Made by a program: the position numbers and the translations under genes. Positions 4,213 through 20,361 of a DNA stretch of 64,000 bases are shown here, in pieces. The notes beneath the pieces are model-generated. The model was given only the letters and a program-made list of their open reading frames with translations, searched no databases and was not told the DNA's origin. Numbering within the stretch: the stretch's first letter is position 1; each line of letters begins with the position of its first letter. The stretch comes from Amycolatopsis keratiniphila subsp. keratiniphila (GTDB lineage: Bacteria > Actinomycetota > Actinomycetes > Mycobacteriales > Pseudonocardiaceae): assembly GCF_001620365.2 (NCBI RefSeq), contig NZ_LQMT02000019.1:12912-76911 (forward strand), read 5' to 3'.

Positions 4213-4213
4213 C

Positions 4214-6145: not shown

Positions 6146-7369
6146 CTACGGGGCTGACGCCGGGCGCTTGAGCGAGACCGGCAGCGATCGATGGCCGTTG
6201 GAGATGAACGAGTCGAGATGCCGTAAAGCGTCCGGCGAGGCCGCGAGCGTCATGTCCGGGAAACGCTCGAACAGGGCCGGAAGGGCGATCGCCGCCTCGA
6301 GCCGGGCCAGCGGCGCGCCGATGCAGTAGTGCGCGCCGTACCCGAACGCGATATGCGCTCTGTCCTTCCGCAACACGTCGAAAGCGTCGGCGTCCTGCCC
6401 GTGCAGCGCCGGATCCCGTCCGGCGGCGGCGTAGCCGGCCAGGATCGCGTCGCCTTGCCGGATCACCACGTCGGCGACGGCGATGTCTTCGACGGCGTAG
6501 CGCAACGGCAGGTTCGCCACGGGAGCCTGCCAGCGCAGGGTTTCCTCGATCGCGTCGGTCCAGGAGGCCTGTCCGGCGCGGAGCAGAGCGAGCTGATCGG
6601 GATGGGTCAGCAGCGCGGTGATGGCCTGGTCGAGGAGATTCACGGTGGTTTCGTGACCGGCCGAGATGAACAGGATCAGGGTGTCGATCAGTTCCGTTTC
6701 GTCGAGCCGGGCGCCGTCGTCCTGTGCGGCGATGAGCGCGGTGGTGAGATCCTCGCCCGGGTTCTCCCGCTTGGCGGCGACGAGTTCGGTGAAGATCGAG
6801 TGGATTTCCTGGTAGGCGGCCAGCATCGCTTCTTGGCTGGCCGAGGTCCGGAAGAAGACGTCGACCGAATGCCGCAGTCTGCCGCGGGCCGCGTCCGGTA
6901 CGCCGAACAGGTGGCAGATCACTTCGATGGGCACCGGATAGGCGAAGTTCTCCCGCAGGTCGACGGGATCGCCCTCGGGCAGGGCCGCGAGCCCGTCCAG
7001 CAGATCGGTGACGATCCGGGTGATCCAGGGCTCCAGCGTGGCGATCCTGCGTGCCGTGAAGGCCTGCGTGACGAGGGACCGGAGCCGTTTGTGGTCGGCG
7101 CCGTAAGCGGTGAACATGTTCCGCACGTTGACCCACACCAGCAACGGCCAGTCCGCGCTGACCTCGGCAAGCGCCGGCCAATGCTGCCGGGCGTCCTTGG
7201 AAACACGCGGATCGCTGAGCAGGTCACGCAGCAGCTCGTAACCCGTCACCGACCAGGCCACGACACCGCCCGGCAACTCGACTCGGGTGATCGGGCCTCG
7301 TTCACGCAGTCGTGCGTTCTCGGCGTGGATGTCTTGGCCGTTCGGGTCCAGAACCAGGGGACGCGTCAC
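6146..7369 (-). CDS. Cytochrome P450
   Basis: 407-aa soluble bacterial P450 haem monooxygenase. The I-helix oxygen-activation motif [12 protein letters not shown], the K-helix EETLRW (ExxR) and the haem loop [17 protein letters not shown], with axial Cys near residue 349, are all intact. No substrate can be assigned. The GTG start at 7369 follows GAAAGGGTGAT. It lies 86 bp beyond iacF on the same strand and may be the last cistron of the iac operon, although P450s are not part of the described iac pathway; it may instead be an unrelated neighbour. No ferredoxin gene is adjacent; the fusion at 4214 is the nearest candidate redox partner. Confidence 0.93.
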
Positions 7370-7455
7370 CGGGGATCACCCTTTCTCGGCGGAGCGGACC
7401 GGGTCCAGCGTGCCAGCGGTGCCCGTCACCCGGCTATTCGCCAAACGGTGGTCGC

Positions 7456-8409
7456 TCAGTACAGCTCGATGACGAGCCGGTCGGTCAGCGCGCGTGAGAC
7501 GCACAGCGCCATTTGGCCTTCACGGTCGGCGGCGGTCAGGCAGTTGTCCCGATGGTCCGGGGTACCTTCGAGCACGCCGGACACGCACGAGCCGCAAATC
7601 CCTTCCTCACAGGACTTGAAGACCTCGATGCCGTTGTCCTCGAGCACCGCCAGGATCGATTTCCCGGCCGGTACCTCGAATTCCTCGCCGGTGTCGAGTT
7701 CGACGGTGAGGGGACGGTCGCCCGAGGTGTCCACTTCGGCGGCTTCGAAATGTTCGACGTGCACGTGGTCGGCGCCGACGACGGGGCCGAGCACGTCGCC
7801 GACCTGTCGCATGAAACCGTCGGGGCCACAGGTGTAGATGTGGGTCGACGGGGTAAGGCCCTCGGCGATCGTCCGCAGCACGGCGGGATGTTCAGTGCGG
7901 GGAACGCCGAAATGCGGCCGGATCCGGTCGGCGAACTCGACCCGTTCTTCCAGAAGTTCCACGAACGCCGCGGTTTCCCGTGAGCGCGCGAAGTAGTGCA
8001 GCTCGAATTCACTGCCCCAGGTGTAGAGCTCGTAGGCCATCGAGAGCAGCGGCGTGATGCCGATACCGCCGGCGACGAGGACGTGCCGGTCCGCGTCTTC
8101 GGCGACGGCCAGCAGGTTGCGCGGCTCGCTGATCTTGAGGTGATCGCCGACCGAGACCTGATGCATCGCCACGGACCCGCCGCGCGAGTCCGGTTCCCGT
8201 TTGACCGCGATCAGGATCGAGCGCGGGTCGTCGGGGGCGCCGCACAGCGAATACTGCCGCAGCACCCCCGTCGGGCCGACGACGTCGACGTGCGCCCCGG
8301 CCCGATAACGGACGCGCAGCGGCTCGTCGTCCTGCCGCACCAGCCGCAGGGTACGGATTTCCGGTGTCTCGTCAGTGATTTCGACGACGCGGAAGAGGAC
8401 GTTCGTCAT
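7456..8409 (-). CDS. iacF: IacF-like reductase of the iac dioxygenase (FMN/NAD/2Fe-2S)
   Basis: 317-aa phthalate-dioxygenase-reductase-type protein. Domain order is FMN-binding barrel (RQYSLCGAP), NAD-binding domain (VAGGIGITPLLSM, CGPDGFMRQV) and a C-terminal plant-type [2Fe-2S] ferredoxin with C267, C272, C275 and C303. It would take electrons from NADH and pass them to the Rieske centre of IacC, replacing separate reductase and ferredoxin. The gene follows the SDR gene by 15 bp with GGAGG before its ATG, within the tightly packed iac operon. The reductase class is certain; the name rests on cluster content. Confidence 0.88.
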   Translation of the reverse strand: MTNVLFRVVEITDETPEIRTLRLVRQDDEPLRVRYRAGAHVDVVGPTGVLRQYSLCGAPDDPRSILIAVKREPDSRGGSVAMHQVSVGDHLKISEPRNLLAVAEDADRHVLVAGGIGITPLLSMAYELYTWGSEFELHYFARSRETAAFVELLEERVEFADRIRPHFGVPRTEHPAVLRTIAEGLTPSTHIYTCGPDGFMRQVGDVLGPVVGADHVHVEHFEAAEVDTSGDRPLTVELDTGEEFEVPAGKSILAVLEDNGIEVFKSCEEGICGSCVSGVLEGTPDHRDNCLTAADREGQMALCVSRALTDRLVIELY

Positions 8410-8424
8410 CTGGGTGCCTCCTGG

Positions 8425-9174
8425 TCAGCGCATGAACAGGCCGCCGTTCGCGTCCCAGCAGGCGCCGGTGACGGAGGCGGCTTCGGGGGAGGCGAGCAGC
8501 GCCACCATCTCGGCGATGAACGTCATGCTGCCCAGCCGTCCGACCGGGATGCCGGCCGTCAGCTTCGCGAGGTTCTCCTCACCGACGATGCGGTGGACCA
8601 TGGGGCTGTCCTGCGGTCCGGGGGAGACCGCGTTCACCGTGACTCCCCGTGCGGCGAGCTCGCGGGCGAACACCTTGGTCGCGGTCAGGATCGCGCCCTT
8701 GGAGGACGCGTAGTGCCCGCCCGTCGAGGTGCCGCCGTTCTGCCCTGCCAGCGAGGCCAGATTGACGATCCGGCCGTATCCGGCTTCGGCCATGTGCGCG
8801 CCGAACAGCTGGCAGGCGTGGAAGGTGCCGTTGAAGTTCACCGCCATCACCTCGTCGAGCTCCTGCGGCGTGATCTCCAGCAACGGTCGCGCCTGGGTGC
8901 GGGCGGCGTTGTTGACCAGCACCTGCACCCCGCCGAAGTCACCGAGCACGGACGCGAGCAGCTGGTCGATGTCCGGGCGGCTGGCGACGTCGACCCGGTA
9001 GCTCTGGGCGTGCGCCCCCGTCCGGTCCAATTCGGTCGCGAGCCGTTTCGCGGCCGCCTCGTCGAGGTCGGCGATCGCCACCCGGTGGCCGCCGCTGTGC
9101 AGGCGCCGGACGATCTGCTCGCCGAGCCCGGTCGCCCCGCCGGTGACCACGGCGACCGGCGCGTTGCCGCTCAC
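8425..9174 (-). CDS. iacE: IacE-like short-chain dehydrogenase/reductase
   Basis: 249-aa classical SDR. It carries the cofactor motif TGGATGLG (residues 11-18), NNAA (88-91), catalytic S141 and the Y155-x3-K159 pair in YASSKG. In the iac pathway IacE acts with IacA on oxidised IAA intermediates on the way to 3-hydroxy-2-oxindole-3-acetate; the chemistry here is inferred from family. The GTG start at 9174 overlaps the stop of the upstream iacD gene in a GTGA junction, indicating translational coupling. A long N-terminal extension in the same frame has no protein-like composition and is not used. Confidence 0.87.
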   Translation of the reverse strand: MSGNAPVAVVTGGATGLGEQIVRRLHSGGHRVAIADLDEAAAKRLATELDRTGAHAQSYRVDVASRPDIDQLLASVLGDFGGVQVLVNNAARTQARPLLEITPQELDEVMAVNFNGTFHACQLFGAHMAEAGYGRIVNLASLAGQNGGTSTGGHYASSKGAILTATKVFARELAARGVTVNAVSPGPQDSPMVHRIVGEENLAKLTAGIPVGRLGSMTFIAEMVALLASPEAASVTGACWDANGGLFMR

Positions 9175-9665
9175 AGCAGGAATCCCGCGGCGGGGACGGC
9201 TTCGTCGGCGTTGACCAGCCGGACGACTTTGCGGGCGAAGCGGTCTTCGCCCGCACTGGCGCCGAGGCGGACGACGTAGTCGACGTCCGCGGCCCACAGG
9301 TCGTGACGGCCGCGTTTGTACGCCACGATGATCTGGGCGGCCCTGAGCGTGACCGACCGGTCGTCGACGCTCGTGGGGATGAAACGCGAGACGGTCCGCA
9401 CGGTGATCGCCGAGTCCACCGCGGCGATCGCGTAGCCCTCGGTCATCCGCCGCACGCGCAGTCCGCGCATCCGGGCGTCGTCGTTGACCATGTTGAGGAC
9501 GTCGTCGAAATCCTCGGCGTCGCGTTCGATCGGGATGACGTACCTCGCGTCTTCGGCGTAAAGCCCTTGCCAGGTCTCGTATTCCTTGGCGTCCAGCAGC
9601 GCGGCCTCGCGCCACGCCAGTTCGATCGCGCGGACCACACGGGGATCGGTGAGGGTCTCAGTCAT
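9171..9665 (-). CDS. iacD: IacD-like ring-hydroxylating dioxygenase small (beta) subunit
   Basis: 164-aa NTF2-fold beta subunit of an aromatic-ring-hydroxylating dioxygenase. WREAALLDAKEYETWQGLYAEDARYVIPI and the later RTVSRFIPTS and AAQIIVAYKRG regions are typical of the family. The subunit has no metal centre; it stabilises the alpha3beta3 oligomer with IacC. Its ATG lies inside the end of iacC (8-bp overlap) and its stop overlaps the start of iacE, so alpha, beta and SDR are coupled. Family assignment is firm; the substrate is inferred from neighbours. Confidence 0.9.
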   Translation of the reverse strand: MTETLTDPRVVRAIELAWREAALLDAKEYETWQGLYAEDARYVIPIERDAEDFDDVLNMVNDDARMRGLRVRRMTEGYAIAAVDSAITVRTVSRFIPTSVDDRSVTLRAAQIIVAYKRGRHDLWAADVDYVVRLGASAGEDRFARKVVRLVNADEAVPAAGFLL

Positions 9666-10953
9666 CGCTCATCATCCGTTTCCATTGGGCGTACGCCGCC
9701 CGCATCCCGGTCTCGTCGGTGACATGGCTGGTCGGCCAGCCCTCGGCGGAGGGCTTCTCGCGACCCAGACCGCGGTTGACCATGATCGGCAGTTCGGGTG
9801 CGCCCTGGGCGCCGCGCTGCACCCGGTCCCAGCCCTCGGAGTCGTCCGGGGTGCCGAATCCGAACGGCCCCTGGAAATGCTCGTGGGCGCGCAGTCGCTC
9901 CCGGTTGACCGGCCCGACGATCTCGGCCGGGCCGTCGCTGCCGAGGGCGACGTGCTCGATCACCGTCTCGTCGACGCTGATCGGCCGCAGCACCCGGAAG
10001 AACGAGATCGACATCGACACGTTCGGGAACAGGTTGAGGTTGAACCCCGTGCCGTGCACGGCACGGACGAGCCTGCGGATCTCGGCCTCGTCCGCCCCCG
10101 CGGCTTCGAGGCTGGCGACCAGGCCGTCGAACCGCGGCTGGAGCGGCTCGCTGCCGTCGTCAGCGTCCAGATCGGAGTGCTCGGGGACCATCTGCATCAC
10201 CGAGTGGCCGTTCCCCAGATCGTGGGTGACCGCCGTCGGATCGGTCATGAACGACATCATCTCGGCGGTTTCCGCGTCGACCGAGGCCATCCAGGAGCGG
10301 TGCACGATGGGGAAGTGGTATCCGTCGGTGGTGTTCTCCAGCTGGATCTTCCAGTTGCCCCGATAGGTGAACCGGTGGGTGCCGAGCACCTTCACCGGGT
10401 AACCGCCGCCCTGCGCCATGAAGCGATCGATCCACAGTTTGACGTCGCCGAGGAAGTCGGCCAGCGGCTCGGCCTCGGTGTTCAGGGTCGCGAAGATCAT
10501 CCCGCCGTAGGACTCGGTGCGCAGGGTCTTCAGCCCGAGATCGGCCTTGTCCATGACGCCCTCGTACCCGTCGGGATACGGGATACCGCGGAGTTTGCCG
10601 TCCAGGCCGTAGGACCAGGCGTGATACGGACAGGTGAATCCGTTGGCGTGGCCGGTCTTCTTCTCGCAGAGCGACGCGCCCCGATGGCGGCACCGGTTCA
10701 CGAGCGTGCGGATCTCGCCCTTACGGTCCTTGGTGACGATGACCGGATGGCGTCCGACGTGGGTCGACTTGAAGCTGCCGGCCTTGGGCAGCTCCGATTT
10801 GTGGGCGACCCAGATCCAGGACCGCTCGAAGATCTTCGTCATCTCCTGGTCGAAGATCGCGGGATCGGTGTACATCCGGCCGGCGACCCGGTCGCCGAGG
10901 ACGAGGTCCGCGGGCGGGAGGTCGTACACGGTGGCGGCGGTGAATTCGGTCAT
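9658..10953 (-). CDS. iacC: IacC-like Rieske dioxygenase large (alpha) subunit
   Basis: 431-aa catalytic subunit of a Rieske non-haem iron dioxygenase. The Rieske [2Fe-2S] ligands are C88-x-H90 and C108-x2-H111 with 17 residues between H90 and C108. The mononuclear iron site shows D210, H213 and H218 in DGYHFPIVHRSW. In the iac pathway IacC converts 3-hydroxy-2-oxindole-3-acetate to catechol. ATG at 10953, 5 bp after the iacB stop; the in-frame sequence upstream belongs to other genes. No catechol cleavage gene lies in the window, so ring opening must be encoded elsewhere. Confidence 0.93.
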   Translation of the reverse strand: MTEFTAATVYDLPPADLVLGDRVAGRMYTDPAIFDQEMTKIFERSWIWVAHKSELPKAGSFKSTHVGRHPVIVTKDRKGEIRTLVNRCRHRGASLCEKKTGHANGFTCPYHAWSYGLDGKLRGIPYPDGYEGVMDKADLGLKTLRTESYGGMIFATLNTEAEPLADFLGDVKLWIDRFMAQGGGYPVKVLGTHRFTYRGNWKIQLENTTDGYHFPIVHRSWMASVDAETAEMMSFMTDPTAVTHDLGNGHSVMQMVPEHSDLDADDGSEPLQPRFDGLVASLEAAGADEAEIRRLVRAVHGTGFNLNLFPNVSMSISFFRVLRPISVDETVIEHVALGSDGPAEIVGPVNRERLRAHEHFQGPFGFGTPDDSEGWDRVQRGAQGAPELPIMVNRGLGREKPSAEGWPTSHVTDETGMRAAYAQWKRMMSDD

Positions 10954-10958
10954 CGCGA

Positions 10959-11330
10959 TCAGCCCCGGTATTCGCGCGGTGTGAGGGCGCGGCCGATGCG
11001 CGCTTCGATCTTGGCGTACTTCCACAGCTTCCACGGGCTGTCGCCGACCGGTGTGGTGCGCAGGAAGTCGCACGCCTTCTTGACGGTCTCCTGCGTGTCG
11101 ACGTCGCAGAGCAGGTAACAGGTCCACGGCCAGCCGTCGGACGGGCCGACCATATGCGAGTCGTCGTCGATGTCGCCGATGAAGTCCACGCCGGGCAAGC
11201 CCTTGATGCCGTCCATCAATGCGACGAAGGCGGTCCAGACGTCTCCAGCGGCGACGCCGCCTTCGGGCAGGTCGAAGAAGTTCTGGTTGATACCGATGCA
11301 GAACAGCACGCGCAGCGGGGTATCGCTCAT
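10959..11330 (-). CDS. iacB: IacB-like small conserved protein
   Basis: 123-aa protein opening MSDTPLRVLFCIGINQNFFD, with WTAFVALMDGIKGLPGVDFIGDIDDD and a Trp/Lys-rich C-terminus (PWKLWKYAKIE). It has no recognisable catalytic motif, and the pattern of strands and helices suggests a small ferredoxin-like alpha/beta sandwich. It sits between the iacA and iacC homologues, matching the position and size class of iacB in proteobacterial iac loci, where it is needed for full IAA turnover but its biochemical step is not well defined. Naming rests mainly on context. Confidence 0.72.
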   Translation of the reverse strand: MSDTPLRVLFCIGINQNFFDLPEGGVAAGDVWTAFVALMDGIKGLPGVDFIGDIDDDSHMVGPSDGWPWTCYLLCDVDTQETVKKACDFLRTTPVGDSPWKLWKYAKIEARIGRALTPREYRG

Positions 11331-11368
11331 GGTGGTGGTCCAACTCCTCGTCAGCGGTCGGTGGTGGG

Positions 11369-12508
11369 TCACTGGAAGCCGGGAACGGTGGGCGGATGGC
11401 CCATCAGCACGGCACCCGCGGCGTCGTACATGGCCGGCCCAAGGAAGGCGTGCTGCTGTGGGACCAGGGCGTCGCCGAGCAGCCACTGCAGCGGATGGTC
11501 CGTGGCGATGGCACCCGTCCCGGACAAGCCGATGACCCGGTTGACGGTCTCGGCGGCGGTCTTCGCGAGGTGGGTCGAGGCGAGCCGGAGATGGGCGTTC
11601 TGATGCGGCGCGACGGGATCGCCGTCCAGCACGGTCTGCCACGCCCCGTCGGTGACCTCGTAGAAGTACGCCCGCGCGGACCGCATCGTCGCCTCGGCTT
11701 CGGCGAGTCCCATCCGGTAATAGGCGCGGTCGGCGAGTTTCGGCGCACCCGTGACGCCCGAACGGCCGCTGCCGACCTCGGTCGCGAAGTCGAGCGCCGC
11801 GCGGGCGACCCCCGCGCCGACGACCGCCAGCACCTGGGAGGCGTACGCGAGCGTGGGGTAGCGGTACAGCGGCTCGTCGATGGTGGGCTCACCGCCGCGG
11901 ATGAACGTCCATTCGCGTGGCACCTCGACCTTGTCGACGACCAGATCGAAGGAACCGGTGCCCTTCATCCCGACGACGTCCCACTCCTGGACGATCTCGA
12001 CCTGCTCGGGCCGCAGCAGGGCGGTGCGCGGCTTTCCGGCGGTCGTGTCGTCCCCCGGGATGCCGACGCCCAGGACGTCCGCGCCCATACAGCCGCTCGC
12101 GAACTTCCAGCGCCCGTCGACCAGGAAACCGGAGGCGGTGGGCTCGGCTCGTTGCACGGGGAAGAGCCCACCGGCGAAGCACACGTCGGGACCGTCGGCG
12201 TAGAGCTCGGCCTGCGTCTCGACGGGCAGCGCCGCGAGATAGACCAGCGCGGAGCCGAAGCTGGCCACCCAGCCGGTGGACCCGTCGACGACGGAGATCC
12301 GCTCCACCGTCCGCAGGAATTCCGCCGGGGGCAGGGGCCTGCCGCCGAACCGTTCGGGCGTCGCGGACCGGTAGACGCCTGCCGCCTTGAGTCTGCCGAC
12401 GAAGTCGCGGGAGACGTACCGCTGGTCGCGGAACTCCTGACGGCGCTCGAGGAGTTCGGCCAGGACGTCGTCGAGTGTCACGGCCGGGCTCTCCTGGATC
12501 TGGGCCAT
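11369..12508 (-). CDS. iacA: IacA-like flavin-dependent indole-3-acetate monooxygenase
   Basis: 379-aa protein with acyl-CoA dehydrogenase/HpaB-DszC fold: helical N-terminal domain (SRDFVGRLKAAGVYRSATPE), middle beta domain (DGRWKFASGCMGADVLGV, IVQEWDVVGMKGTGSFDLVV) and C-terminal four-helix bundle ending in IGLSGTGAIATDHPLQWLLGDA. Such enzymes use reduced flavin from a partner reductase, here probably IacG, to hydroxylate rather than dehydrogenate. IacA starts IAA catabolism by oxidising the indole ring. First gene of the leftward operon; ATG at 12508 preceded by GAGGAG, with a -10-like TAGCGT at 12544-12549. Confidence 0.88.
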   Translation of the reverse strand: MAQIQESPAVTLDDVLAELLERRQEFRDQRYVSRDFVGRLKAAGVYRSATPERFGGRPLPPAEFLRTVERISVVDGSTGWVASFGSALVYLAALPVETQAELYADGPDVCFAGGLFPVQRAEPTASGFLVDGRWKFASGCMGADVLGVGIPGDDTTAGKPRTALLRPEQVEIVQEWDVVGMKGTGSFDLVVDKVEVPREWTFIRGGEPTIDEPLYRYPTLAYASQVLAVVGAGVARAALDFATEVGSGRSGVTGAPKLADRAYYRMGLAEAEATMRSARAYFYEVTDGAWQTVLDGDPVAPHQNAHLRLASTHLAKTAAETVNRVIGLSGTGAIATDHPLQWLLGDALVPQQHAFLGPAMYDAAGAVLMGHPPTVPGFQ

Positions 12509-12566
12509 CGGGCGCTCCTCGCGTCGTAGGGAAGATGTCTCCGACGCTAGGGATCACCGCCGCGCG

Positions 12567-12579: not shown

Positions 12580-12612
12580 TTGCCTGCCGGTGGCCGGGGA
12601 TTCCCACGCAGA

Positions 12613-12633
12613 GGGGTAGGGGAAATCCTTACC
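12613..12633. promoter_or_regulatory. Shared iac promoter motif, copy 1 (iacA/kinase spacer)
   Basis: GGTAGGGGAAATCCTTACC is a partial dyad (GGTAGGG against CCTTACC, 6 of 7 pairs). Related sequences occur upstream of iacG (14152-14169) and in the carrier/amidase spacer (18911-18927). It sits between the divergent iacA and kinase genes. The best candidate binder is the FixJ-type regulator at 16214. Supported only by recurrence and position. Confidence 0.5.
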
Positions 12634-12667
12634 GGAGGGTCCGGCGGCGAACTCCTATGCTGAGCCC

Positions 12668-14155
12668 GTGGAGGTCGACCCGATCGCGCCCGAGCTGGCC
12701 ACCGGCGACTTCGTGGCGATGATGAACGCCTCGAAGGTGTGCGTGCTGGTCCACGACGCGGCGACCAAGAACATCCTGTGGGCCAATCCCGCCGCGTGCG
12801 AAATGCTCGAATTCAGTCTTTCCGAGCTGCGCCCGCTCAAGGCCAACCACATGAGCAGCTCCGCCCAGCAGTACGACCGGGTGATCGGACGGGCCTGGCT
12901 CCAGGCGGCGGTCGAACACGGTTCGAGCCGGATCGTGTGGCACTACCGGAGCAAATCCGGCCGGGTCATCCCCACCGACGCGGTCGCCATCCGGGTCGAG
13001 CTGGAGCGCGGCCCCGCGGTGATGGTCCAGTTCCGCGACATCCAGCGCGCGGAGGAGATCGAACGAGAGCTGAAGCTGACCACGTCGTACGTCGACGCGC
13101 TGGCCCGGCACACCTCGACCGTGGCGTTCATGCTCGACGCCGCCGGCGCGGTCCGGTTCGCGACGGACAGCGCGCTGACCTTCCTCGGCCTGACCGGCGA
13201 CGACGACCGCCTGGCAGGCGAGCCGCTGACCGCGTACGCGCGGTTGTACCTGGGCGGCAGGCCGGTGCGCTGGGCCGAGGTGGTCGCCGGTGCCGATCCG
13301 GTCGGGCCGGTGCAGCTGGAGTTGCCGGGGGAGAGCTCGACCTGGCTGGAAGGGAGCCTGGAGCGGCTTTCCGAGTCCAAGGTCGACGCGTATCTGATGA
13401 TCCTGCACGACGTGTCCGAACGCGTCCGCGGCGAAGCCCGGCGAGAGCTGGAGCTGCGGCACGAGAACTACCTGGCGCGCTACAACGCCATGGGGGACAT
13501 GGCGATGGCGATCGCGCACGAACTCGGGCAGCCGCTGGCCGCCGCCGCGAACTTCATCGCGGGTATCCGGGCGCGTGCGGCCACGATGGCGGACGGCGGC
13601 GACGTCCGTGAGCAGATGGGCTACGGCCTGGACAGCGTCGCCCGTCAGATCGACCGGGCCAAGGACATCGTCGGTTCACTGCGGTCGTTCGTCGGGCATC
13701 TGGAACAGGTCGAGCAGGTGGTCGACCTGAACGAGATCGTCCGGGAATGCCTGTACTTCGTCGAGCTGAGCGCCGCGCCGAACTCGGTCACCGTGCAGGT
13801 CCGGCTCGATCCGGCGCCGGTGCTGGTGCGGTGCGAACGCGTCCTCACCGGGCAGGTGGTGATGAACCTCTGCCTCAACGCGATCGACGAGACCACCGAA
13901 TGCGAACCCGTGCAGCGGCGGATCACGGTGGGCACCCGGGCCAAGGAGGGGGTCGGCGTCCTCACCGTCGACGATCACGGCCGCGGCGTCGCCAGGGATC
14001 CGTTCGCCGAGTCGTTCACCAGCAAACCCGGTGGCAGCGGGATCGGGCTGGCGCTGAGCCATCGCATCATCACCCGGCAGCACGGGAGCATCTGGGCCGA
14101 GCGGCGGGACGGCGGCGGCTCGCGGTTCGGCTTCGCCCTGCCGCTGGCCACGTAA
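12668..14155 (+). CDS. Soluble PAS-domain sensor histidine kinase (IacS-like)
   Basis: 495-aa kinase without membrane segments, hence a cytoplasmic sensor. Two PAS-like regions span about residues 15-125 (ILWANPAACEMLEFSLSEL) and 135-250 (DAAGAVRFATDSALTFLG). FixL-type phospho-acceptor AMAIAHELGQPLAAAANFI lies near residue 280, followed by an HATPase domain (NLCLNAI, GGSGIGLALSHRII). It probably detects IAA or an early metabolite inside the cell; a kinase with LuxR-type partner is known from some proteobacterial iac loci. GTG at 12668 lies 7 bp after a TATGCT -10 hexamer, so the transcript is likely leaderless. Its partner regulator is three genes downstream. Confidence 0.88.
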   Translation: MEVDPIAPELATGDFVAMMNASKVCVLVHDAATKNILWANPAACEMLEFSLSELRPLKANHMSSSAQQYDRVIGRAWLQAAVEHGSSRIVWHYRSKSGRVIPTDAVAIRVELERGPAVMVQFRDIQRAEEIERELKLTTSYVDALARHTSTVAFMLDAAGAVRFATDSALTFLGLTGDDDRLAGEPLTAYARLYLGGRPVRWAEVVAGADPVGPVQLELPGESSTWLEGSLERLSESKVDAYLMILHDVSERVRGEARRELELRHENYLARYNAMGDMAMAIAHELGQPLAAAANFIAGIRARAATMADGGDVREQMGYGLDSVARQIDRAKDIVGSLRSFVGHLEQVEQVVDLNEIVRECLYFVELSAAPNSVTVQVRLDPAPVLVRCERVLTGQVVMNLCLNAIDETTECEPVQRRITVGTRAKEGVGVLTVDDHGRGVARDPFAESFTSKPGGSGIGLALSHRIITRQHGSIWAERRDGGGSRFGFALPLAT

Positions 14156-14169
14156 GGGAAATCCTCAGG
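14152..14169. promoter_or_regulatory. Shared iac promoter motif, copy 2 (upstream of iacG)
   Basis: GTAAGGGAAATCCTCAGG overlaps the kinase stop codon and lies 44 bp before a TAGCGT -10-like hexamer at 14214-14219, itself 7 bp before the iacG ATG. The core GTAAGGGAAATCCT closely matches the copy at 12613-12633. This suggests iacG has its own activated, leaderless promoter rather than relying only on read-through from the kinase gene. Confidence 0.5.
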
Positions 14170-14225
14170 CGGCGCGGTGGAACTCGGGATATCGCCGGTT
14201 TCGGCCACGGCTCTAGCGTCGGGGT

Positions 14226-14726
14226 ATGCCCGATGAGCTGACCACCACCCAGCGACGGTTCCGCGCGGCGATGGCGAACCTTTCGACGGCTGTCAACATC
14301 GTCACCACCGACGGCGTCAGCGGCCGCGCCGGCATCACGGTGAGCGCGGTCTGCTCGGTCACCGACTCGCCGCCGACGCTGCTGGTCTGCGTCAACCAGT
14401 CGAGCTACACACACGACATCTTCCGGACCAACGGCAGGATGGCCATCAACGTCCTGGCCGCGCAGCACGAGGATCTCGCCCTGCAGTTCGCCGGCGCGAC
14501 GGACGTGCCGATGCTCGACCGGTTCCGGTTCGAGGTCTGGGATCACGACAGGTTCGGCATCCCCGTGGTCCGCGACGCGGCCGCCGTCCTCATCGGAGGA
14601 GTCGGCGCCGAGTTCACCCAAGGGACGCACACGGTGCTCTTCGTCGAGGTCGAAGACGTCTTCGTCGACGAGGAGGCCGGTGGTCTCGCCTACTTCCGGC
14701 GCGAATTCCACCGGATCGCGCCATGA
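14226..14726 (+). CDS. iacG: IacG-like flavin reductase
   Basis: 166-aa flavin reductase of the HpaC/FMN-binding split-barrel family. Typical elements are RAAMANLSTAVNIVTTDG, GITVSAVCSVTDSPPTLLVCVN and FRTNGRMAINVLAAQHEDLA. It supplies reduced flavin to the two-component monooxygenase IacA, encoded divergently. The ATG lies 7 bp after a TAGCGT hexamer, implying a leaderless mRNA. The 3' end overlaps the next gene (ATGA), so the two are coupled. Confidence 0.88.
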   Translation: MPDELTTTQRRFRAAMANLSTAVNIVTTDGVSGRAGITVSAVCSVTDSPPTLLVCVNQSSYTHDIFRTNGRMAINVLAAQHEDLALQFAGATDVPMLDRFRFEVWDHDRFGIPVVRDAAAVLIGGVGAEFTQGTHTVLFVEVEDVFVDEEAGGLAYFRREFHRIAP

Positions 14727-14983
14727 GTGAGCGCACCACGTTGATGTGTTACAACGACAACCACGGCTACGGCTGGCGCCATGTGGACCTGTTCGTGCAC
14801 GACTCCGAGGGCCGTGAGCTGAACTGGGTCCATTGGCAGGCCCCGGCCGACGGTCCCGAGGCCGCCGACGAGGTGACGGCGCGGGTCGAAGCCCGGCTGA
14901 AGCGGACGTCGGAGTGGCGGCACGGGGTCAGCGCGGGCGGCGTGGACTATTGGGAAGCGGATGCCGCGTGGGAGGACGAGTGA
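14723..14983 (+). CDS. Small conserved-looking protein of unknown function in the iac locus
   Basis: 86 aa, unusually rich in His, Trp and acidic residues (MCYNDNHGYGWRHVDLF, WVHWQAPADG, CT DYWEADAAWEDE). No known domain or motif recognised. Its start overlaps the iacG stop (ATGA) and its stop overlaps the amidase start (GTGA), so it is a real, translationally coupled cistron. It has no counterpart among the named iac genes I know. A role as an accessory or metal-binding factor would be speculation. Confidence 0.75.
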   Translation: MSERTTLMCYNDNHGYGWRHVDLFVHDSEGRELNWVHWQAPADGPEAADEVTARVEARLKRTSEWRHGVSAGGVDYWEADAAWEDE

Positions 14984-16200
14984 ACCTCATGCGCCCGTGG
15001 TCGCTGCGGGAACTCGTCCAGGACCTGCGGCTGGGGCGGACCACTCCGGAAGCGGCCGCGAAACGCGCGCTCGCCCGGATCGCCGAGACGGACTCGGAGC
15101 TGCGCGCCTGGGTCGACCGGACGGACTTCCTGCCGGGCGCGGGTGTGCCACTCGGAGTCAAAGACATCATAGATCTGGCGGGTGTGCCCACCCGTTGCGG
15201 TTCGACGCTGCGCGCGGAAGCCGCTCCGGCGGCTTCGGACGCGGCGATCGTGACCGCGTGGCGCGCGGCCGGAATGGCTCCGCTCGGAAAGACGGTCACG
15301 ACCGAGTTCGCGTTCTTCGCCCCTGGCCCGACCCGAAATCCCGCTGCTCCCGGTCACACCCCGGGCGGCTCGTCGAGCGGGTCGGCCGCCGCGGTCGCGT
15401 CCGGGCAGGTACCGTTGGCGCTCGGTTCGCAGACCGCGGGGTCGGTCACCAGGCCGGCGTCGTACTGCGGGGTCGCGTCGCTGGTGATGAGCCACGGCCG
15501 GTACCCGGTCACCGGTGTGACGGGATTGAGCCCCAGCCTGGACAGTCACGGTGTCTTCGCGGCCACGGCCGCCGACCTCGCGATCGCGTGGGCCGCGCTG
15601 ACCGAAGAGCCCGCGCAGGAAGCGCGTCCACCGCGGATCCTGGTGTGGTCCGCCGACGCGCTCGACGTCGTCGAAACACCGATGCGGCATGCGTTGAACC
15701 AGGCGGCGAAGCGTCTGCACGAAGCAGGGGCGATCGTCGAGCCGTTCTGTGACGAACGGCTGATGGCCGAGCTCACGGCCGCGCATCCGGTCGTGATGGC
15801 CTATGAGGCTGCGCGGGAAAGGGCCGCGGAACTCGCCGTGGCCGAGCGGTTGAGCGCGCCCTTGGCGCAACTGCTCCGGGCCGGTGCCGCGACCTCGGCC
15901 GACGAGTACGAGGCCGCCCGCGCGACCATCGCCGACGGCGCGGTGCGGCTCGCGGAGATGTTCGACGTCGTGCTCGGCCCGGCCGCGCCCGGCGCGGCGC
16001 CACCCGGACTGGAGGCGACGGGGAACCCGGTGCTGAGCCGGGGATGGCAGGCACTCGGCCTGCCCGTGGTCGCCTTGCCCGGATTCACCGACACGGCGGG
16101 GCTGCCGCTGGGTCTGCAACTCGTCGGCCGCCACGGCGGGGAGAACGAACTGCTCGGCCACGCGTGCTGGGCGGAGCGGGTGCTCGCCGGGGATTCATGA
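14980..16200 (+). CDS. Amidase-signature enzyme 1 of the iac locus (IacH-like)
   Basis: 406-aa amidase-signature hydrolase. The Ser-cisSer-Lys triad is recognisable: Lys in GVKDIIDLAG, cis-Ser in the Gly/Ser-rich GGSSSGSAAAVASG, and nucleophile Ser in GSQTAGSVTRPASYCG. Proteobacterial iac clusters carry one amidase, IacH, of unsettled role; plausible substrates are amide conjugates of IAA or a ring-opened oxindole. GTG at 14980 overlaps the previous stop; ATG at 14989 is an alternative. A second amidase at 18955 competes for the IacH label. Confidence 0.85.
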   Translation: MNLMRPWSLRELVQDLRLGRTTPEAAAKRALARIAETDSELRAWVDRTDFLPGAGVPLGVKDIIDLAGVPTRCGSTLRAEAAPAASDAAIVTAWRAAGMAPLGKTVTTEFAFFAPGPTRNPAAPGHTPGGSSSGSAAAVASGQVPLALGSQTAGSVTRPASYCGVASLVMSHGRYPVTGVTGLSPSLDSHGVFAATAADLAIAWAALTEEPAQEARPPRILVWSADALDVVETPMRHALNQAAKRLHEAGAIVEPFCDERLMAELTAAHPVVMAYEAARERAAELAVAERLSAPLAQLLRAGAATSADEYEAARATIADGAVRLAEMFDVVLGPAAPGAAPPGLEATGNPVLSRGWQALGLPVVALPGFTDTAGLPLGLQLVGRHGGENELLGHACWAERVLAGDS

Positions 16201-16213
16201 TAGGGAGCTCTCC

Positions 16214-16855
16214 ATGGTCACCACCGATTCCGCGTCCGGCGGCGAGACGTCGCCGGTGGTCTACATCGTCGACGACGACGAGGCCATCCGCCAATCCCTG
16301 GTGTTCCTGCTGGAGAGCGTCGGCATCCAGGCGCTCGTCTACCCGGACGGGCCGACGTTCCTGGAGGAGTTCGACCCGGACGAGCCGAGCGTGCTGATCG
16401 TCGACGTCCGGATGCCGGGGCTCAGCGGCCTGCAACTGCAGGAGAAACTGGTCGCCCGCGAATTCCCGGCCCCGGTGATCTTCTGTTCCGCGCACGGCGA
16501 CATCCCGATGTCGGTACGGGCGCTCCGCCTCGGCGCCGTCGACTTCCTCGAGAAGCCGTACGAGCCGCAGCGGATGCTGGAGGTCGTCCAGGCGCAGCTG
16601 GTGGTCGCGGCGGAACGGTTCTCTGAAGCCGCCTGCCGCAAAGCCGTCACCGAGCGGATCGCGACGCTGACCCCGCGCGAACGCGAGGTGCTCCGGCTGG
16701 TGATCGACGGTCTGCCCAGCCAGCTGATCGCGCGGCAGCTGGGCACGAGCGTGAAGACCGTCGATGTGCACCGGGCCCGGATCAAGGCCAAGACCGAGTC
16801 GGACAGCCTCGGCACTTTGGTGCGCGATGTGCTTCAGCACCAGGTCACGGTGTAG
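16214..16855 (+). CDS. FixJ-type response regulator (LuxR HTH), IacR2-like
   Basis: 213-aa regulator. Receiver with YIVDDDEAIRQSL, phospho-acceptor D64 in LIVDVRMPG and Lys in FLEKPYEP, the FixJ hallmark in place of NarL-type LLK. LuxR HTH LTPREREVLRLVIDG follows at about residues 148-205. It ends the kinase-iacG-unknown-amidase-regulator gene group, so its partner is the soluble kinase at 12668. It probably activates iac promoters in response to IAA or a metabolite. ATG 13 bp after the amidase stop, preceded by AGGGAG. Confidence 0.9.
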   Translation: MVTTDSASGGETSPVVYIVDDDEAIRQSLVFLLESVGIQALVYPDGPTFLEEFDPDEPSVLIVDVRMPGLSGLQLQEKLVAREFPAPVIFCSAHGDIPMSVRALRLGAVDFLEKPYEPQRMLEVVQAQLVVAAERFSEAACRKAVTERIATLTPREREVLRLVIDGLPSQLIARQLGTSVKTVDVHRARIKAKTESDSLGTLVRDVLQHQVTV

Positions 16856-16874
16856 GTGCCGATCGGTCCAGGTG

Positions 16875-16920
16875 GTCGTGAGTGGCGATTCGGGTTAGAA
16901 CACGAATCGCCACTCACGAC
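16875..16920. repeat. 18-bp perfect hairpin (CGTGAGTGG family), probable bidirectional terminator
   Basis: Arm GTCGTGAGTGGCGATTCG (16875-16892) and its exact complement (16903-16920) flank a 10-nt loop. It lies between the convergent regulator and iacI genes, 7 bp from the latter's stop. The same arm sequence recurs at 5759, in split form at 43274/43437, and in shorter form at 57494-57532. Confidence 0.8.
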
Positions 16921-16926
16921 ACGCGA

Positions 16927-17475
16927 TCAAGCCATCAGCACCGAAGCCGTCGGAAAGTCCGAAGCGAACCCCGCGGGCAGCGGAGCGATGAAGACGTTCT
17001 CGGTCCGCGTGCGGGTGATGAGCCAACGCCCGTCCTGACGCCGGAACGTGTTGTTGAGCCTGCTCGATCGCAGCAGCCCCGTCCCGTCGGCGTACAGCCA
17101 GGGCTGGACGTGGATCCATTGCCCGTCGGCCCGATCGCCGTCGACGTGGATCTGCTCCGAGGTCAGGTAGTGCGCGTTGAGGACCAGCGCCGGGTCCCGT
17201 TTCTCACCCCAGAACCGCCCGAAATGCGCCCGGATCGCGTCCTTGCCCACCGCACGGCCGAACTGTCCGTCGTAGTACTCGCCGACGCCCTCCCAGACCG
17301 CGTCCTCGGCGTACAGGTCGAGGATCAGGTCGATGCGCCGGTCGTCGTCGGTGACGCCGTACTCCGGGCACGGCGTGTCGCAGAGGAACATGTAGCGCGC
17401 CTGCACGCGGCGGATCTCGGCCTCGGCCTCCAGCATCTCGACGCGGCGCCGGAGTTCGGTGAGTTCGTCGTTCAT
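16927..17475 (-). CDS. iacI: IacI-like SnoaL/NTF2-fold protein
   Basis: 182-aa protein with an N-terminal helix (ELTELRRRVEMLEAEAEIRRVQ) and a SnoaL-like NTF2 fold: LILDLYAEDAVWEGVGEYYDG, then ALVLNAHYLTSEQIHVDGD and LNNTFRRQDGRWLITRT. NTF2-fold enzymes act as cyclases, isomerases or small dioxygenase-like proteins; IacI of proteobacterial clusters is of this type, without a firmly settled step. The start overlaps the stop of the upstream carrier gene by ATGA, so the order of transcription is carrier then iacI. Naming is from cluster content. Confidence 0.78.
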   Translation of the reverse strand: MNDELTELRRRVEMLEAEAEIRRVQARYMFLCDTPCPEYGVTDDDRRIDLILDLYAEDAVWEGVGEYYDGQFGRAVGKDAIRAHFGRFWGEKRDPALVLNAHYLTSEQIHVDGDRADGQWIHVQPWLYADGTGLLRSSRLNNTFRRQDGRWLITRTRTENVFIAPLPAGFASDFPTASVLMA

Positions 17476-18794
17476 CGGTGTGTCCTCACGGGTGCGGTTT
17501 CGGGAAGAGCCAGCAGACAGACGACGGTCAGGGCCATGCCGCCCGCCAGGTAGTAGCCGACCGACGTCGAGGTGCCGGTCCATTCGATGAGCCGGTTCGC
17601 CATCGACGGCGCGAGGCCGCCACCGAGCACCGCACCGATCTGGTACGCGAGCCCGGCGCCGGACTGCCGTTGTTCGGGCGTGAACAGTTCCGTCAGGTAG
17701 GTGATCAGCGGGCCGAACAGGAATCCGGTGAGCGCGAAACCGCCGGCGATGGCGAGCGCCCAGGCGGTCAGCGTGCCGACCCGCGCGATCGGGAAGAGCA
17801 CGAACATGTACGCCAGGACAGCGACCGACGCCGCGAGCATCACCGGTTTGCGGCCGAGCCGGTCGGAGAGCCGGGCGCCGAGCACCACCGTCACCGCGTG
17901 GATCGCGAGGCCGGGCAGCGTGCACCACAGCACGTCCTGGATGTCCAGGCCGAGACCCTTCGGCGCGGGGCCGGCGGCGTAGGAGAGCATGAACCCGGCC
18001 AGGACGAACATGACGCCGTTGAGCCCGGTGTTCGCACCGGCCGCGAGCAGCAGCCTGCCCCAGTTGTCGCGGATGACGTTCCAGATCGGGATCTTGACGA
18101 TCTTCTCGTCCAGTTTGCTGGCCGCGAGCTCCTGGAACACGGGCGATTCCTCCAGCGCCCGCCGCGCCCAGACACCGATGGCGAGGACGACCGCGCCCGC
18201 GATGAACGGGATCCGCCAGCCCCAGCTGGTGACGACCCCTTGCGGCAAGTAGAAGATCAGCACGAAGGCGAGGTTCGCCAGCAGCGCGCCGAGCGGTGAA
18301 CCCAAGGCGACGAAGGCGCCGAACGCCGCCCGTCGTGACGGCGGCGCGTGCTCGACGGCGAGTACCGACGCCCCGCCCAGCTCACCGCCCCGGGAGAAGC
18401 CGTGCACCAGGCGCAACAGGACGAGCAGGAACGGCGCCGCGACACCCATGGTGGCGTAGCCGGGCAAGAGTCCCATGAGGACGGTGGCCGCGCCCATGAG
18501 GTAGAAGGTGATGAGCATGGCGCGGCGGCGGCCGTAGCGGTCGCCGACCCAGCCCATCACGATCGCGCCGAGCGGCGCGACGACGTAGCCGATCGTGTAG
18601 GTCGCCAGGCTCATGAACGAGGCGAACCAGGGATCGGTGTCGCCGGAGAAGAACACCTTGGGGAAGACCAGCGCGGAGGCGACGGTGTAGATGGAGAAGT
18701 CGAAGAACTCCAGCGAGGTCCCGGCACCCGCGCCGATCGCGAGCCGGCGGGTCTGGGTCGAGGTGGTCGTGGATGGAGCGGTGGATGCTGTCAT
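17472..18794 (-). CDS. MHS-family MFS carrier, probable IAA/aromatic acid importer
   Basis: 440-aa 12-TM major facilitator of the metabolite:H+ symporter group. Family signatures include GAGTSLEFFDFSIYTVAS at the first helix, GWVGDRYGRRRAM after helix 2-3, and a long loop with RALEESPVF between the two halves. Members import organic acids by proton symport. Coupled by ATGA overlap to iacI and placed within the iac locus, it most likely imports IAA or a related aromatic acid. ATG at 18794; the longer open frame upstream crosses the promoter region and is not supported. Confidence 0.88.
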   Translation of the reverse strand: MTASTAPSTTTSTQTRRLAIGAGAGTSLEFFDFSIYTVASALVFPKVFFSGDTDPWFASFMSLATYTIGYVVAPLGAIVMGWVGDRYGRRRAMLITFYLMGAATVLMGLLPGYATMGVAAPFLLVLLRLVHGFSRGGELGGASVLAVEHAPPSRRAAFGAFVALGSPLGALLANLAFVLIFYLPQGVVTSWGWRIPFIAGAVVLAIGVWARRALEESPVFQELAASKLDEKIVKIPIWNVIRDNWGRLLLAAGANTGLNGVMFVLAGFMLSYAAGPAPKGLGLDIQDVLWCTLPGLAIHAVTVVLGARLSDRLGRKPVMLAASVAVLAYMFVLFPIARVGTLTAWALAIAGGFALTGFLFGPLITYLTELFTPEQRQSGAGLAYQIGAVLGGGLAPSMANRLIEWTGTSTSVGYYLAGGMALTVVCLLALPETAPVRTHR

Positions 18795-18910
18795 GCGCGC
18801 TCTTCCTTGAACGGTGACGGGCGGTCGACGTTGCACCCCTCCCGGCAACGTTCGTCTCAAGGTAGGAAGGTCGAAGTACCGCGCCAAGTGGAGGAACCCG
18901 TTCCCCGGCT

Positions 18911-18927
18911 GAAGGTTTTCCCTACCC
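18911..18927. promoter_or_regulatory. Shared iac promoter motif, copy 3 (carrier/amidase spacer)
   Basis: On the minus strand this reads GGGTAGGGAAAACCTTC, matching the core GTA-GGGAAA-CCT of copies 1 and 2. It lies 46 bp before a TACCTT -10-like hexamer (18859-18864, minus strand) serving the carrier gene, close to the 44-bp distance seen at iacG. It also lies 28 bp before the amidase start on the other strand. Confidence 0.5.
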
Positions 18928-18954
18928 GGTTCCCGACATAGAGGAGGTCCGCGC

Positions 18955-20361
18955 GTGAGCGCCGTCAACGATCTGCCCGCCACCACCCAGGCCGAGTTGC
19001 TGGCCACCGGCGAGTTGTCGGCGAGGGAACTGCTCGACGCCACTCTCGACCGCGTGGCGGAGCTGAACCCGGTTCTGAACGCCGTCGTCAGCATCGACGA
19101 GGAGAGCGCGCGGGCCGCCGCCGCGGCGGCCGACGAGGCACGGGCGGCCGGTCGGTCGCTCGGACCGCTCCACGGGCTTCCGCTCGCCGTGAAGGATCTC
19201 CACGCGACGGCCGGGATGCGCACCACCTTCGGCTCGCCCGCGTTCGCGGACAACGTTCCCGACGCCGACGAACTCGTCGTCGCCCGGATGCGCGCCGCGG
19301 GCGCGATCGTCTTCGGCAAGACGAACGTCCCCGAGTTCGGCGCGGGCTCGCACACCTTCAACCCGGTGTTCGGCCTGACCCGCAATCCCTACGCGCCGGA
19401 CCGTTCGGCGGGCGGATCGAGCGGGGGCGCCGCCGCCGCGCTCGCGGCCGGGATGGCGTCGCTGGCGGACGGCAGCGACATGGGCGGATCGCTGCGGAAT
19501 CCCGCCTCGTTCTGCAACGTCGTCGGCCACCGCCCGAGCCCAGGGCGGGTCCCGACCTGGCCGGCGCGGGACGCCTGGTTCACCCTCGGTGTCCAAGGCC
19601 CGATGGGACGCACGGTCGCCGACACGGCCCTGCTGTTGTCCGTGCAGGCGGGCCCCGACGATCGCGCCCCGCTGTCGCTGGCCGAATCCGGCAGCGTGTT
19701 CGCGGCCGGATTGCCGACCCGGCTTGACGGGTTGCGCATCGCGGTGTCGCCCGATCTCGGCGGCCGGGTGCCCGTCGACACCGAGGTCGCGGCGGTCGTG
19801 GAAGACCAGGTGAACGTCCTGCGCCGCCTTGGCGCCGAGGTCGTCTCGGGCTGTCCGGATCTGACCGGGGCGGAAGAGGTCTTCCGTACCTTCCGCGCCC
19901 TGAACTACGCGCAGTCCGTCGGTGATCTCGTCGACGGTGAACCGGACAAGGTCAAGGAGACCGTCCGCTGGAATGTCGCGAAAGGACGCGCGCTCACCGG
20001 CGCGGACATCGCGACCGCCAACCGGCTGCGCACCGAACTGTTCCACCGCGTCCGCGCGTTCTTCTCCGAAGTGGACGCCGTCGTTCTCCCCGCCAGCCAG
20101 GTCCTTCCCTTCGACGCGGAGCTGGAGTACCCGAAGAGCGTGGGCGGGACCGAGGTCGAGGACTACCTGCACTGGATGCGGGCGGCCTATCTGATTTCGG
20201 CCACGGAATGCCCGGCCACGGCCGTCCCTGCGGGTTTCACCGCCGGTGGGCTGCCGGTCGGGGTCCAGGTGGTCACGCCGCACCATGCCGATCTTCGCGC
20301 GCTCGGGATCGCGCACGCGCTGGAGAAGGCGAACGGTCACACCGCTCGCAGGCCGGTCTGA
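18955..20361 (+). CDS. Amidase-signature enzyme 2 of the iac locus
   Basis: 468-aa amidase-signature hydrolase, the usual full length. Catalytic Lys in LAVKDLHATAGM, cis-Ser in SAGGSSGGAAAALAAG and nucleophile Ser in DGSDMGGSLRNPASFCNVVG. Likely cytoplasmic, cleaving a C-N amide bond, perhaps IAA-amino-acid conjugates or IAM, which would feed free IAA to the pathway; the substrate is inference. GTG at 18955 is preceded by GAGGAGG. It is divergent from the carrier gene and shares the spacer holding the iac promoter motif, which supports membership of the regulon. Confidence 0.87.
   Translation: MSAVNDLPATTQAELLATGELSARELLDATLDRVAELNPVLNAVVSIDEESARAAAAAADEARAAGRSLGPLHGLPLAVKDLHATAGMRTTFGSPAFADNVPDADELVVARMRAAGAIVFGKTNVPEFGAGSHTFNPVFGLTRNPYAPDRSAGGSSGGAAAALAAGMASLADGSDMGGSLRNPASFCNVVGHRPSPGRVPTWPARDAWFTLGVQGPMGRTVADTALLLSVQAGPDDRAPLSLAESGSVFAAGLPTRLDGLRIAVSPDLGGRVPVDTEVAAVVEDQVNVLRRLGAEVVSGCPDLTGAEEVFRTFRALNYAQSVGDLVDGEPDKVKETVRWNVAKGRALTGADIATANRLRTELFHRVRAFFSEVDAVVLPASQVLPFDAELEYPKSVGGTEVEDYLHWMRAAYLISATECPATAVPAGFTAGGLPVGVQVVTPHHADLRALGIAHALEKANGHTARRPV

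What the first reader, a model, noticed from the sequence alone, without database searches (positions are those of the whole stretch)
6146..20361. Complete indole-3-acetic acid (auxin) catabolic locus in an actinomycete
Seen: in one 12-kb stretch there is an HpaB/acyl-CoA-dehydrogenase-like monooxygenase, small IacB-type protein, Rieske alpha and beta subunits, SDR, PDR-type reductase, flavin reductase, amidase-signature enzymes, SnoaL protein and MHS carrier. Known: this is the gene content of iacA-I described in Pseudomonas, Paraburkholderia and Caballeronia, which convert IAA to catechol. Inference: the host degrades plant auxin. The split into a leftward iacABCDEF operon, a regulator/iacG/amidase group and an iacI-carrier operon differs from the proteobacterial orders I know.
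Basis: partly seen in the sequence, partly recalled or inferred. Interest (0 to 1): 0.75.

Follow-up and report, generated by a model that had tools for sequence, protein, structure and literature searches.

The report
Auxin-degradation gene cluster in Amycolatopsis
A soil actinomycete carries a full set of genes predicted to break down the plant hormone auxin (indole-3-acetic acid) to catechol, a gene set already known from other bacteria; here, as in most related actinomycete clusters examined, it sits with a sensor/response-regulator pair and a short DNA box repeated near its promoters.

Summary
In detail: all nine iac genes (A-I) lie at 7456-17475, with an MHS carrier to 18794, in an Amycolatopsis genome. 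IacB, the most specific marker, is called 'IacB protein' in annotated proteobacterial records, and the window's IacA-I match an annotated Acinetobacter locus at 24-61% identity. catB-, catA- and catC-type genes lie side by side about 214 kb away, so IAA to catechol to ring cleavage is encoded. The locus is not rare: 73 of 390 genomes examined in its family have IacB. Auxin loci in Actinobacteria were already in print as genomic potential. Its core order (H-G-kinase / A-B-C-D-E) is common in the fetched loci (40 of 68), the exact full layout rarer (6 of 68). The cytochrome P450 (6146-7369) and second amidase are lineage-specific. Verdict: a known kind of locus, with a testable regulatory signature that I did not find in print.

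The parts
6146..7369 (-). cytochrome P450, directly downstream of iacF; lineage-specific, probably not part of the iac pathway
   Evidence: PF00067 100 bits; at this place in 5 near relatives L151-L155, absent in the A. azurea stretch L156; 1 of 68 loci has it at 250 bits or more
7456..8409 (-). iacF, PDR/VanB-type ferredoxin reductase
   Evidence: Fer2 + NAD-binding; present in 57 of 68 loci
8425..9174 (-). iacE, short-chain dehydrogenase (Ox-IAA to DOAA by analogy with C. glathei)
   Evidence: adh_short; present in 68 of 68 loci
9171..9665 (-). iacD, Rieske oxygenase beta subunit
   Evidence: PF00866 42 bits, cut-off 27; 65 of 68 loci
9658..10953 (-). iacC, Rieske oxygenase alpha subunit; C88/H90/C108/H111 (Rieske ligands by motif, recalled) and H213/H218 kept in at least 97% of 86 aligned sequences
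10959..11330 (-). iacB, 123 aa, no Pfam or NCBIfam family; ferredoxin-like fold predicted
   Evidence: homologous to records named 'IacB protein'; model pLDDT 88.8; no family
11369..12508 (-). iacA, flavin-dependent (ACAD/HpaB-type) monooxygenase
   Evidence: PF08028 81 bits; NCBIfam HsaA model 145 bits, far below its cut-off 450; tree
12614..12633 (-). box 1 in the kinase/iacA divergent intergenic region (core 12616-12631)
   Evidence: 21.3 bits with a matrix trained without the window; exact pattern match
12668..14155 (+). PAS-containing histidine kinase (H284; N400 and G1 436 by motif), IacS-like sensor
   Evidence: PAS, HisKA, HATPase_c; 66 of 68 loci; residues
14150..14169 (-). box 2 before iacG
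   Evidence: 17.6 bits; exact match; 44 of 109 box hits outside the training stretches of 80 loci lie before iacG
14226..14726 (+). iacG, HpaC-type flavin reductase
   Evidence: PF01613 119 bits; HpaC 182 bits, cut-off 206
14833..16200 (+). iacH, amidase-signature enzyme (start uncertain); K110, S180-S182 and S204 kept in at least 97% of 78 aligned sequences
   Evidence: PF01425 177 bits
16214..16855 (+). FixJ/LuxR-type response regulator; D64 conserved
   Evidence: Response_reg 92 bits + GerE 51 bits; FixJ model 199 bits, cut-off 255; 66 of 68 loci
16927..17475 (-). iacI, SnoaL-like protein
   Evidence: PF13577 68 bits, cut-off 24; 61 of 68 loci
17472..18794 (-). MHS-family metabolite:H+ symporter, candidate IAA uptake carrier
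   Evidence: TIGR00883 349 bits, cut-off 443; 25 of 68 loci
18908..18927 (+). box 3 upstream of the carrier-iacI genes
   Evidence: 26.1 bits; exact match
18955..20361 (+). second amidase, lineage-specific accessory gene
   Evidence: PF01425 345 bits; NF005686 498 bits over cut-off 465; 1 of 68 loci has it at 350 bits or more

Best explanation
This is an iac locus: genes for taking up indole-3-acetic acid and converting it to catechol, in an Amycolatopsis of the A. roodepoortensis/A. azurea group. By analogy with characterised iac enzymes: IacA with reduced flavin from IacG oxidises IAA to 2-oxindole-3-acetate, IacE (perhaps helped by IacB) gives dioxindole-3-acetate (DOAA), and IacCD with reductase IacF, plus IacH and IacI, takes DOAA to catechol, which the catB-catA-catC-type genes elsewhere on the contig would cleave. 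The DOAA-to-catechol steps are unresolved in the papers seen too. The MHS carrier probably imports IAA. Expression is probably switched on by the PAS histidine kinase and the FixJ/LuxR-type response regulator, the latter acting through a 16-bp box before three gene groups (kinase/iacA, iacG, carrier-iacI). Shown here: gene content, conservation, box positions and its link to iac loci. Inferred: substrate, flux, signal, and that the regulator binds the box.
For: All nine iac genes plus carrier. IacB is a specific marker: 28 plasmid records match, four of them annotated 'IacB protein' at the match. Trees place IacA and IacC among iac proteins. Conserved arrangement. CatA above cut-off (494 vs 404 bits), CatC above cut-off (152 vs 131), a muconate cycloisomerase-type gene (187 bits, below its cut-off 335) next to them. 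Kinase and regulator each in 66 of 68 loci; four iac-linked MarR queries hit 1 of 80 loci, the one proteobacterium, and in the window only to 26 bits inside iacI. Box: 72 of 76 kinase/iacA intergenic stretches above the 99th percentile of first-order resampled controls; 109 further hits outside the training stretches, 81 of them before iacG, carrier, catB, RR or iacI, against 0-6 hits for each of 20 column-permuted matrices; 3 exact matches in 9.09 Mb, all in this locus; across 80 genomes of the genus 58 exact matches (reversed pattern 4), 38 of them within 12 kb of iacB; 23 of 30 IacB genomes and 4 of 50 others have one.
Against: No experiment. The pathway after DOAA was unfilled in the paper read. 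The box shows no significant dyad symmetry. Loci with kinase and regulator but no box of 14 bits: Burkholderia L142, actinobacterial L114 and L119; L118 and L009 lack it in the kinase/iacA stretch and have it elsewhere. 22 of 109 box hits outside the training stretches have no mapped gene downstream; 20 of 58 genus matches lie away from iacB and 7 of 30 IacB genomes have none. The cat genes of this genome have no box. In two proteobacterial loci (L125, L147) the amidase matches the window's second amidase better than its iacH. Counts are not corrected for relatedness, the 80 loci are the IacB sequences nearest the window, and near relatives of the window stayed in the matrix that was trained without it.
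Confidence: 0.82

Rival explanations
1. The locus degrades another indole or indole-like acid (indole-3-propionate, -butyrate or a similar compound) and IAA only incidentally.
For: C. glathei IacA and IacE convert indole-3-propionic and -butyric acid (PMC7225977, abstract and passages); identity to the Acinetobacter locus is moderate for some proteins (IacA 45%, IacI 34%, IacD 33%, IacH 30%, IacG 24%).
Against: All nine genes, including IacB, are kept together; IacC and IacB are well conserved to the Acinetobacter and Cupriavidus loci (55-64%).
Confidence: 0.12
2. The box is a promoter element of an alternative sigma factor, not a response-regulator site.
For: No dyad symmetry; one orientation prevails (54 of 72); in that orientation the box centre lies 43-66 bp from the kinase start in the 10th to 90th percentile (median 44).
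Against: Both orientations occur (18 of 72); a held-out Cupriavidus locus with kinase and regulator has two boxes, while of 13 non-actinobacterial loci without the pair one has a single hit, 15.6 bits, about 8 kb from iacA. But one other locus with the pair (L142) has none.
Confidence: 0.2
3. The P450 and second amidase extend the pathway (for example hydrolysis of indole-3-acetamide or IAA conjugates) and belong to the regulon.
For: Same places in 5 near relatives; the third box ends 27 bp before the second amidase start; that amidase scores 248 bits with the indoleacetamide hydrolase model.
Against: Below that model's cut-off (532) and better with a general amidase model; the A. azurea stretch keeps the box before the carrier without either gene; 67 of 68 loci lack each at the thresholds used.
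Confidence: 0.2

Closest known systems
iac locus of Pseudomonas putida 1290 / Acinetobacter type (iacA-I with MarR IacR)
   Same: all nine structural genes and their families; cat genes encoded in the host
   Different: no IacR-like MarR found; genes lie in opposed groups (A-F leftward, kinase-G-H-RR rightward, carrier-I leftward); kinase/regulator pair and box instead. P. putida 1290 itself was not compared; the Acinetobacter NCu2D-2 plasmid locus was
iac loci of Paraburkholderia phytofirmans PsJN and IAA-degrading Pseudomonas with LuxR and IacS (PMC11630574, passages seen)
   Same: two-component regulator linked to iac genes; a Cupriavidus locus (L125) has homologous kinase (36%), regulator (51%) and the box
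   Different: PsJN itself was not compared; a carrier of the MHS family is linked here
auxin-degrading loci of Actinobacteria reported as genomic potential in Conway et al. 2022 (PMC9613470, passages seen)
   Same: Actinobacteria are one of five phyla named there; this locus is of the iac-like type defined there
   Different: that paper treats MarR regulators; 'two-component', 'LuxR' and 'histidine kinase' have no occurrence in its main text
iad locus (Variovorax, Achromobacter)
   Same: Rieske alpha/beta pair for auxin degradation
   Different: the Variovorax locus lacks iacA (PMC9613470); here iacA, iacB and iacI are all present

Membership tests
iac-like auxin degradation locus | marker genes iacA, iacB and iacI present (markers as given in PMC9613470) | tested here: met
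iac-like auxin degradation locus | adjacent iacC and iacD homologs | tested here: met
   9171-9665 and 9658-10953 overlap
iac-like auxin degradation locus | iacE, F, G, H complete the set | tested here: met
   which of the two amidases answers to IacH rests on the fetched actinobacterial loci
iac-like auxin degradation locus | catechol ring cleavage encoded in the host | tested here: met
   catB-A-C-type genes at C11:245.8-248.1 kb
iac-like auxin degradation locus | conversion of IAA to catechol | not testable with these tools
   needs growth and metabolite assays
MarR (IacR)-controlled iac subtype | MarR gene in the locus | tested here: not met
   four proteobacterial iac-linked MarRs against the window: best 26 bits, E 0.03, inside iacI
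two-component (IacS/LuxR) iac subtype | histidine kinase and LuxR-type response regulator in the locus | tested here: met
   orthology to PsJN IacS itself not tested
iad locus | iorB/iadB and iotA/iadA present, iacA absent | tested here: inconclusive
   iacA is present; the two iad markers were not searched for by sequence, but each gene called at 6146-20361 except IacB has a family other than these

The most novel reading that the evidence does not exclude
Actinobacteria run auxin catabolism as an auxin-responsive two-component regulon: a PAS kinase and FixJ/LuxR regulator acting on a conserved 16-bp box before iacA, iacG, the carrier/iacI genes and, in some loci where they are linked, the catBA genes, a control logic different from the MarR repressors on which the auxin-degradation papers seen here centre; and some genomes keep only the sensor pair with iacG, A, B, E, which would stop at DOAA and inactivate auxin without feeding on it.
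Probability: 0.5. Interest if true: 0.55.

Novelty: new member of a known kind. Interest (0 to 1): 0.4.

Why it matters
If true, many soil actinomycetes can remove auxin around roots, and their auxin response can be predicted from a short DNA box. It gives a concrete test (does the response regulator bind the box, and is IAA the signal?) and a comparative handle on the unresolved roles of IacB and of the DOAA-to-catechol steps: IacE accompanies IacB in 68 of 68 loci, also where other iac genes are missing.
Full report
What is there. The window lies in a 9.09-Mb, 72-contig genome (G000, contig C11). Its IacB is 98% identical to that of Amycolatopsis roodepoortensis and 94% to A. azurea, so the host is taken as an Amycolatopsis of that group. 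Between 7456 and 18794 the frames encode, leftward, iacA-B-C-D-E-F; rightward, a PAS histidine kinase, iacG, iacH and a response regulator; leftward, an MHS carrier and iacI. The finding's coordinates also take in a cytochrome P450 (6146-7369) and a second amidase (18955-20361).

Is it an iac locus? IacB has no Pfam or NCBIfam model but matches 28 plasmid records, where one Acinetobacter, two Klebsiella and a Psychrobacter copy are annotated 'IacB protein'. In that Acinetobacter record the neighbours are amidase, acyl-CoA dehydrogenase-like protein, NTF2/SnoaL-type protein, Rieske alpha and beta, SDR, PDR reductase and a flavin reductase-type protein, with MarR and cat genes; the window proteins match them at A 45, B 61, I 34, C 55, D 33, E 54, F 43, G 24, H 30% identity. 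A Cupriavidus locus is closer for most (A 58, B 56, C 64, D 47, F 47, G 50, I 42, E 53%); there, and in Martelella L147, the amidase matches the window's second amidase (31%, 29%) rather than iacH. In trees of 45 IacA and 40 IacC sequences the window sits among iac proteins, away from the host's own HsaA-type and Rieske paralogs; that test had few outgroups. Residues expected to be catalytic in IacC, IacF and IacH and in the regulator's receiver domain are conserved (their roles are recalled from the families). The genome has catechol 1,2-dioxygenase (494 bits, cut-off 404), muconolactone isomerase (152, cut-off 131) and a muconate cycloisomerase-type gene (187, cut-off 335) side by side at C11:245.8-248.1 kb, about 214 kb from the locus.

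How common. An alignment of nine IacB proteins against genome contigs gave 446 pattern-matched stretches, 413 encoding a relative (stretches, not necessarily distinct genes), of which the best 80 loci were fetched: 79 actinobacterial, one Acidovorax. By whole-genome search, 73 of 390 genomes of the family (E 1e-8 or better) and 4 of 396 of a phylum-wide draw (E 1e-5), own genome included in both, have an IacB match. Of the 80 loci, 68 have at least 8.5 kb on both sides (12 left out); in these the kinase is found in 66, regulator 66, iacA 67, C and D 65, E 68, F 57, G 57, H 62, I 61, carrier 25, P450 1, second amidase 1, at the bit thresholds set in the script. The kinase is the divergent left neighbour of iacA in 63. 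A-B-C-D-E stand in order in 51 of 68, H-G-kinase/A-B-C-D-E in 40, and the window's complete layout with carrier, iacI and the regulator in the kinase's direction in 6 (two Amycolatopsis, Nonomuraea, three Nocardioides). P450 and second amidase are additions of the window's own lineage (same places in L151-L155, of which L153 is A. roodepoortensis again; not in A. azurea). In the IacA tree the window groups with copies from Nonomuraea and Nocardioides (98/97) and not with those of A. orientalis or A. taiwanensis, which suggests horizontal transfer; the IacC tree leaves this unresolved.

Regulation. The auxin catabolism papers seen centre on MarR repressors (PMC9613470, passages; PMC10458429, passages), while LuxR and IacS are reported for P. 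phytofirmans PsJN and four Pseudomonas strains (PMC11630574, passages). Four iac-linked MarR proteins used as queries hit 1 of the 80 loci, the Acidovorax one (12 loci have short flanks), and nothing convincing in the window. From 76 kinase/iacA intergenic stretches (window included) an iterative matrix gave the consensus GCTGAAGGAATCCCCTACGC; 72 of 76 exceed the 99th percentile of first-order resampled stretches. Retrained on 70 sites without the window, Cupriavidus and Rhodococcus YL-1 stretches (near relatives of the window stayed in), it finds three sites of 9 bits or more in the 64-kb window, at 12614, 14150 and 18908, that is before kinase/iacA, iacG and carrier-iacI, and two of 14 bits or more in the held-out Cupriavidus locus. 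With the first matrix, 178 hits of 14 bits or more fall in the 80 loci, 69 within training stretches and 109 outside: before iacG 44, carrier 12, catB 9, RR 9, iacI 7, others 6, no mapped gene 22; 20 column-permuted matrices gave 0 to 6 hits each. With the retrained matrix 75 of 80 loci have at least one box (most of these loci contributed a training site); the five without are a contig that begins at iacB (L062), a two-gene locus (L088), the Acidovorax locus (L112), L114 and L119. In the whole genome the pattern TRARGRWTTYMCYTAC has three exact matches, all here, and three with one mismatch elsewhere; the reversed pattern has one at up to one mismatch. The pattern was written after seeing the sites, so what counts is the absence of others. 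In 80 genomes of the genus the looser pattern TRARGRWWTYMCYTAY has 58 exact matches and the reversed pattern 4; 38 of the 58 lie within 12 kb of an iacB; 23 of 30 IacB genomes and 4 of 50 others have one (Fisher p 3e-10, not corrected for relatedness). Against: no dyad symmetry; kinase and regulator but no box in Burkholderia L142, L114 and L119; no box at the host's cat genes.

Proteobacterial controls. Of 15 non-actinobacterial loci read, two have kinase and regulator (L125 with two boxes, L142 without); of the other 13, one (Acinetobacter) has a single 15.6-bit hit about 8 kb from iacA. Three actinobacterial plasmid loci in the same call: Streptomyces L008 has a box just before iacA though its kinase and regulator lie about 12 kb off; Rhodococcus L009 has boxes before iacC and iacI only; Rhodococcus L010 has neither box nor pair within 29 kb.

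IacB and partial loci. IacE accompanies IacB in 68 of 68 loci. Actinophytocola gossypii (L096) and Amycolatopsis antarctica (L117) keep kinase, regulator, iacG, A, B, E without C, D, F, H and I; the first genome has no IacC match and the second only matches of 30-36%. A. jejuensis (L088) and a Psychrobacter plasmid (L145) have iacB and iacE without another iac gene in the stretch read; the A. jejuensis genome has an IacC of 67% elsewhere. This fits the suggestion that IacB works with IacE (PsJN, as cited in PMC9613470 and PMC7225977; not supported by the C. glathei experiments of the latter, passages and section 4.2 read) but does not show it. The IacB model is a confident ferredoxin-like fold without a telling relative.

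Literature on Actinobacteria. PMC9613470 lists Actinobacteria among five phyla with auxin-degrading loci. Rhodococcus PBTS2 grows on IAA although no iac homologs were detected (PMC7002392, passages). The listings and the passages read gave no description of the box or of two-component control in actinobacterial loci.

Verdict. The new part is the regulatory signature, which is sequence evidence only.

Noticed in passing
window 3304-5719: AurF-type N-oxygenase family gene followed by a 4Fe-4S/FAD-type reductase next to the iac locus; in A. azurea the iac genes lie on the other side of these (L156), so the insertion place differs.
   Followed up: partly
L096 and L117: Kinase/regulator pair with iacG, A, B, E but no iacC/iacD in the locus and no close IacC in the genome: a partial pathway that would stop at DOAA.
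   Followed up: partly
L145 (Psychrobacter urativorans plasmid 5) 11980-13135; L088: iacB and iacE without another iac gene in the stretch read.
   Followed up: no
L124 (Klebsiella pneumoniae IncFIB/IncFII plasmid typed as conjugative): A complete iac set (A-I) with a MarR gene on a plasmid typed as conjugative.
   Followed up: no
L126 (Nonomuraea gerenzanensis): An IacA of 71% identity with no other iac gene found within 12 kb.
   Followed up: no
L044, L065, L067, L075, L078, L084, L102, L106, L107: The box stands before catB-type genes that are linked to iac, suggesting that catechol cleavage joins the regulon there.
   Followed up: partly
window 111-1945: A second sensor kinase (Sensor + HisKA_3, 746-1945) with what looks like its response regulator (111-758, by sequence look only) near the window start.
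   Followed up: no
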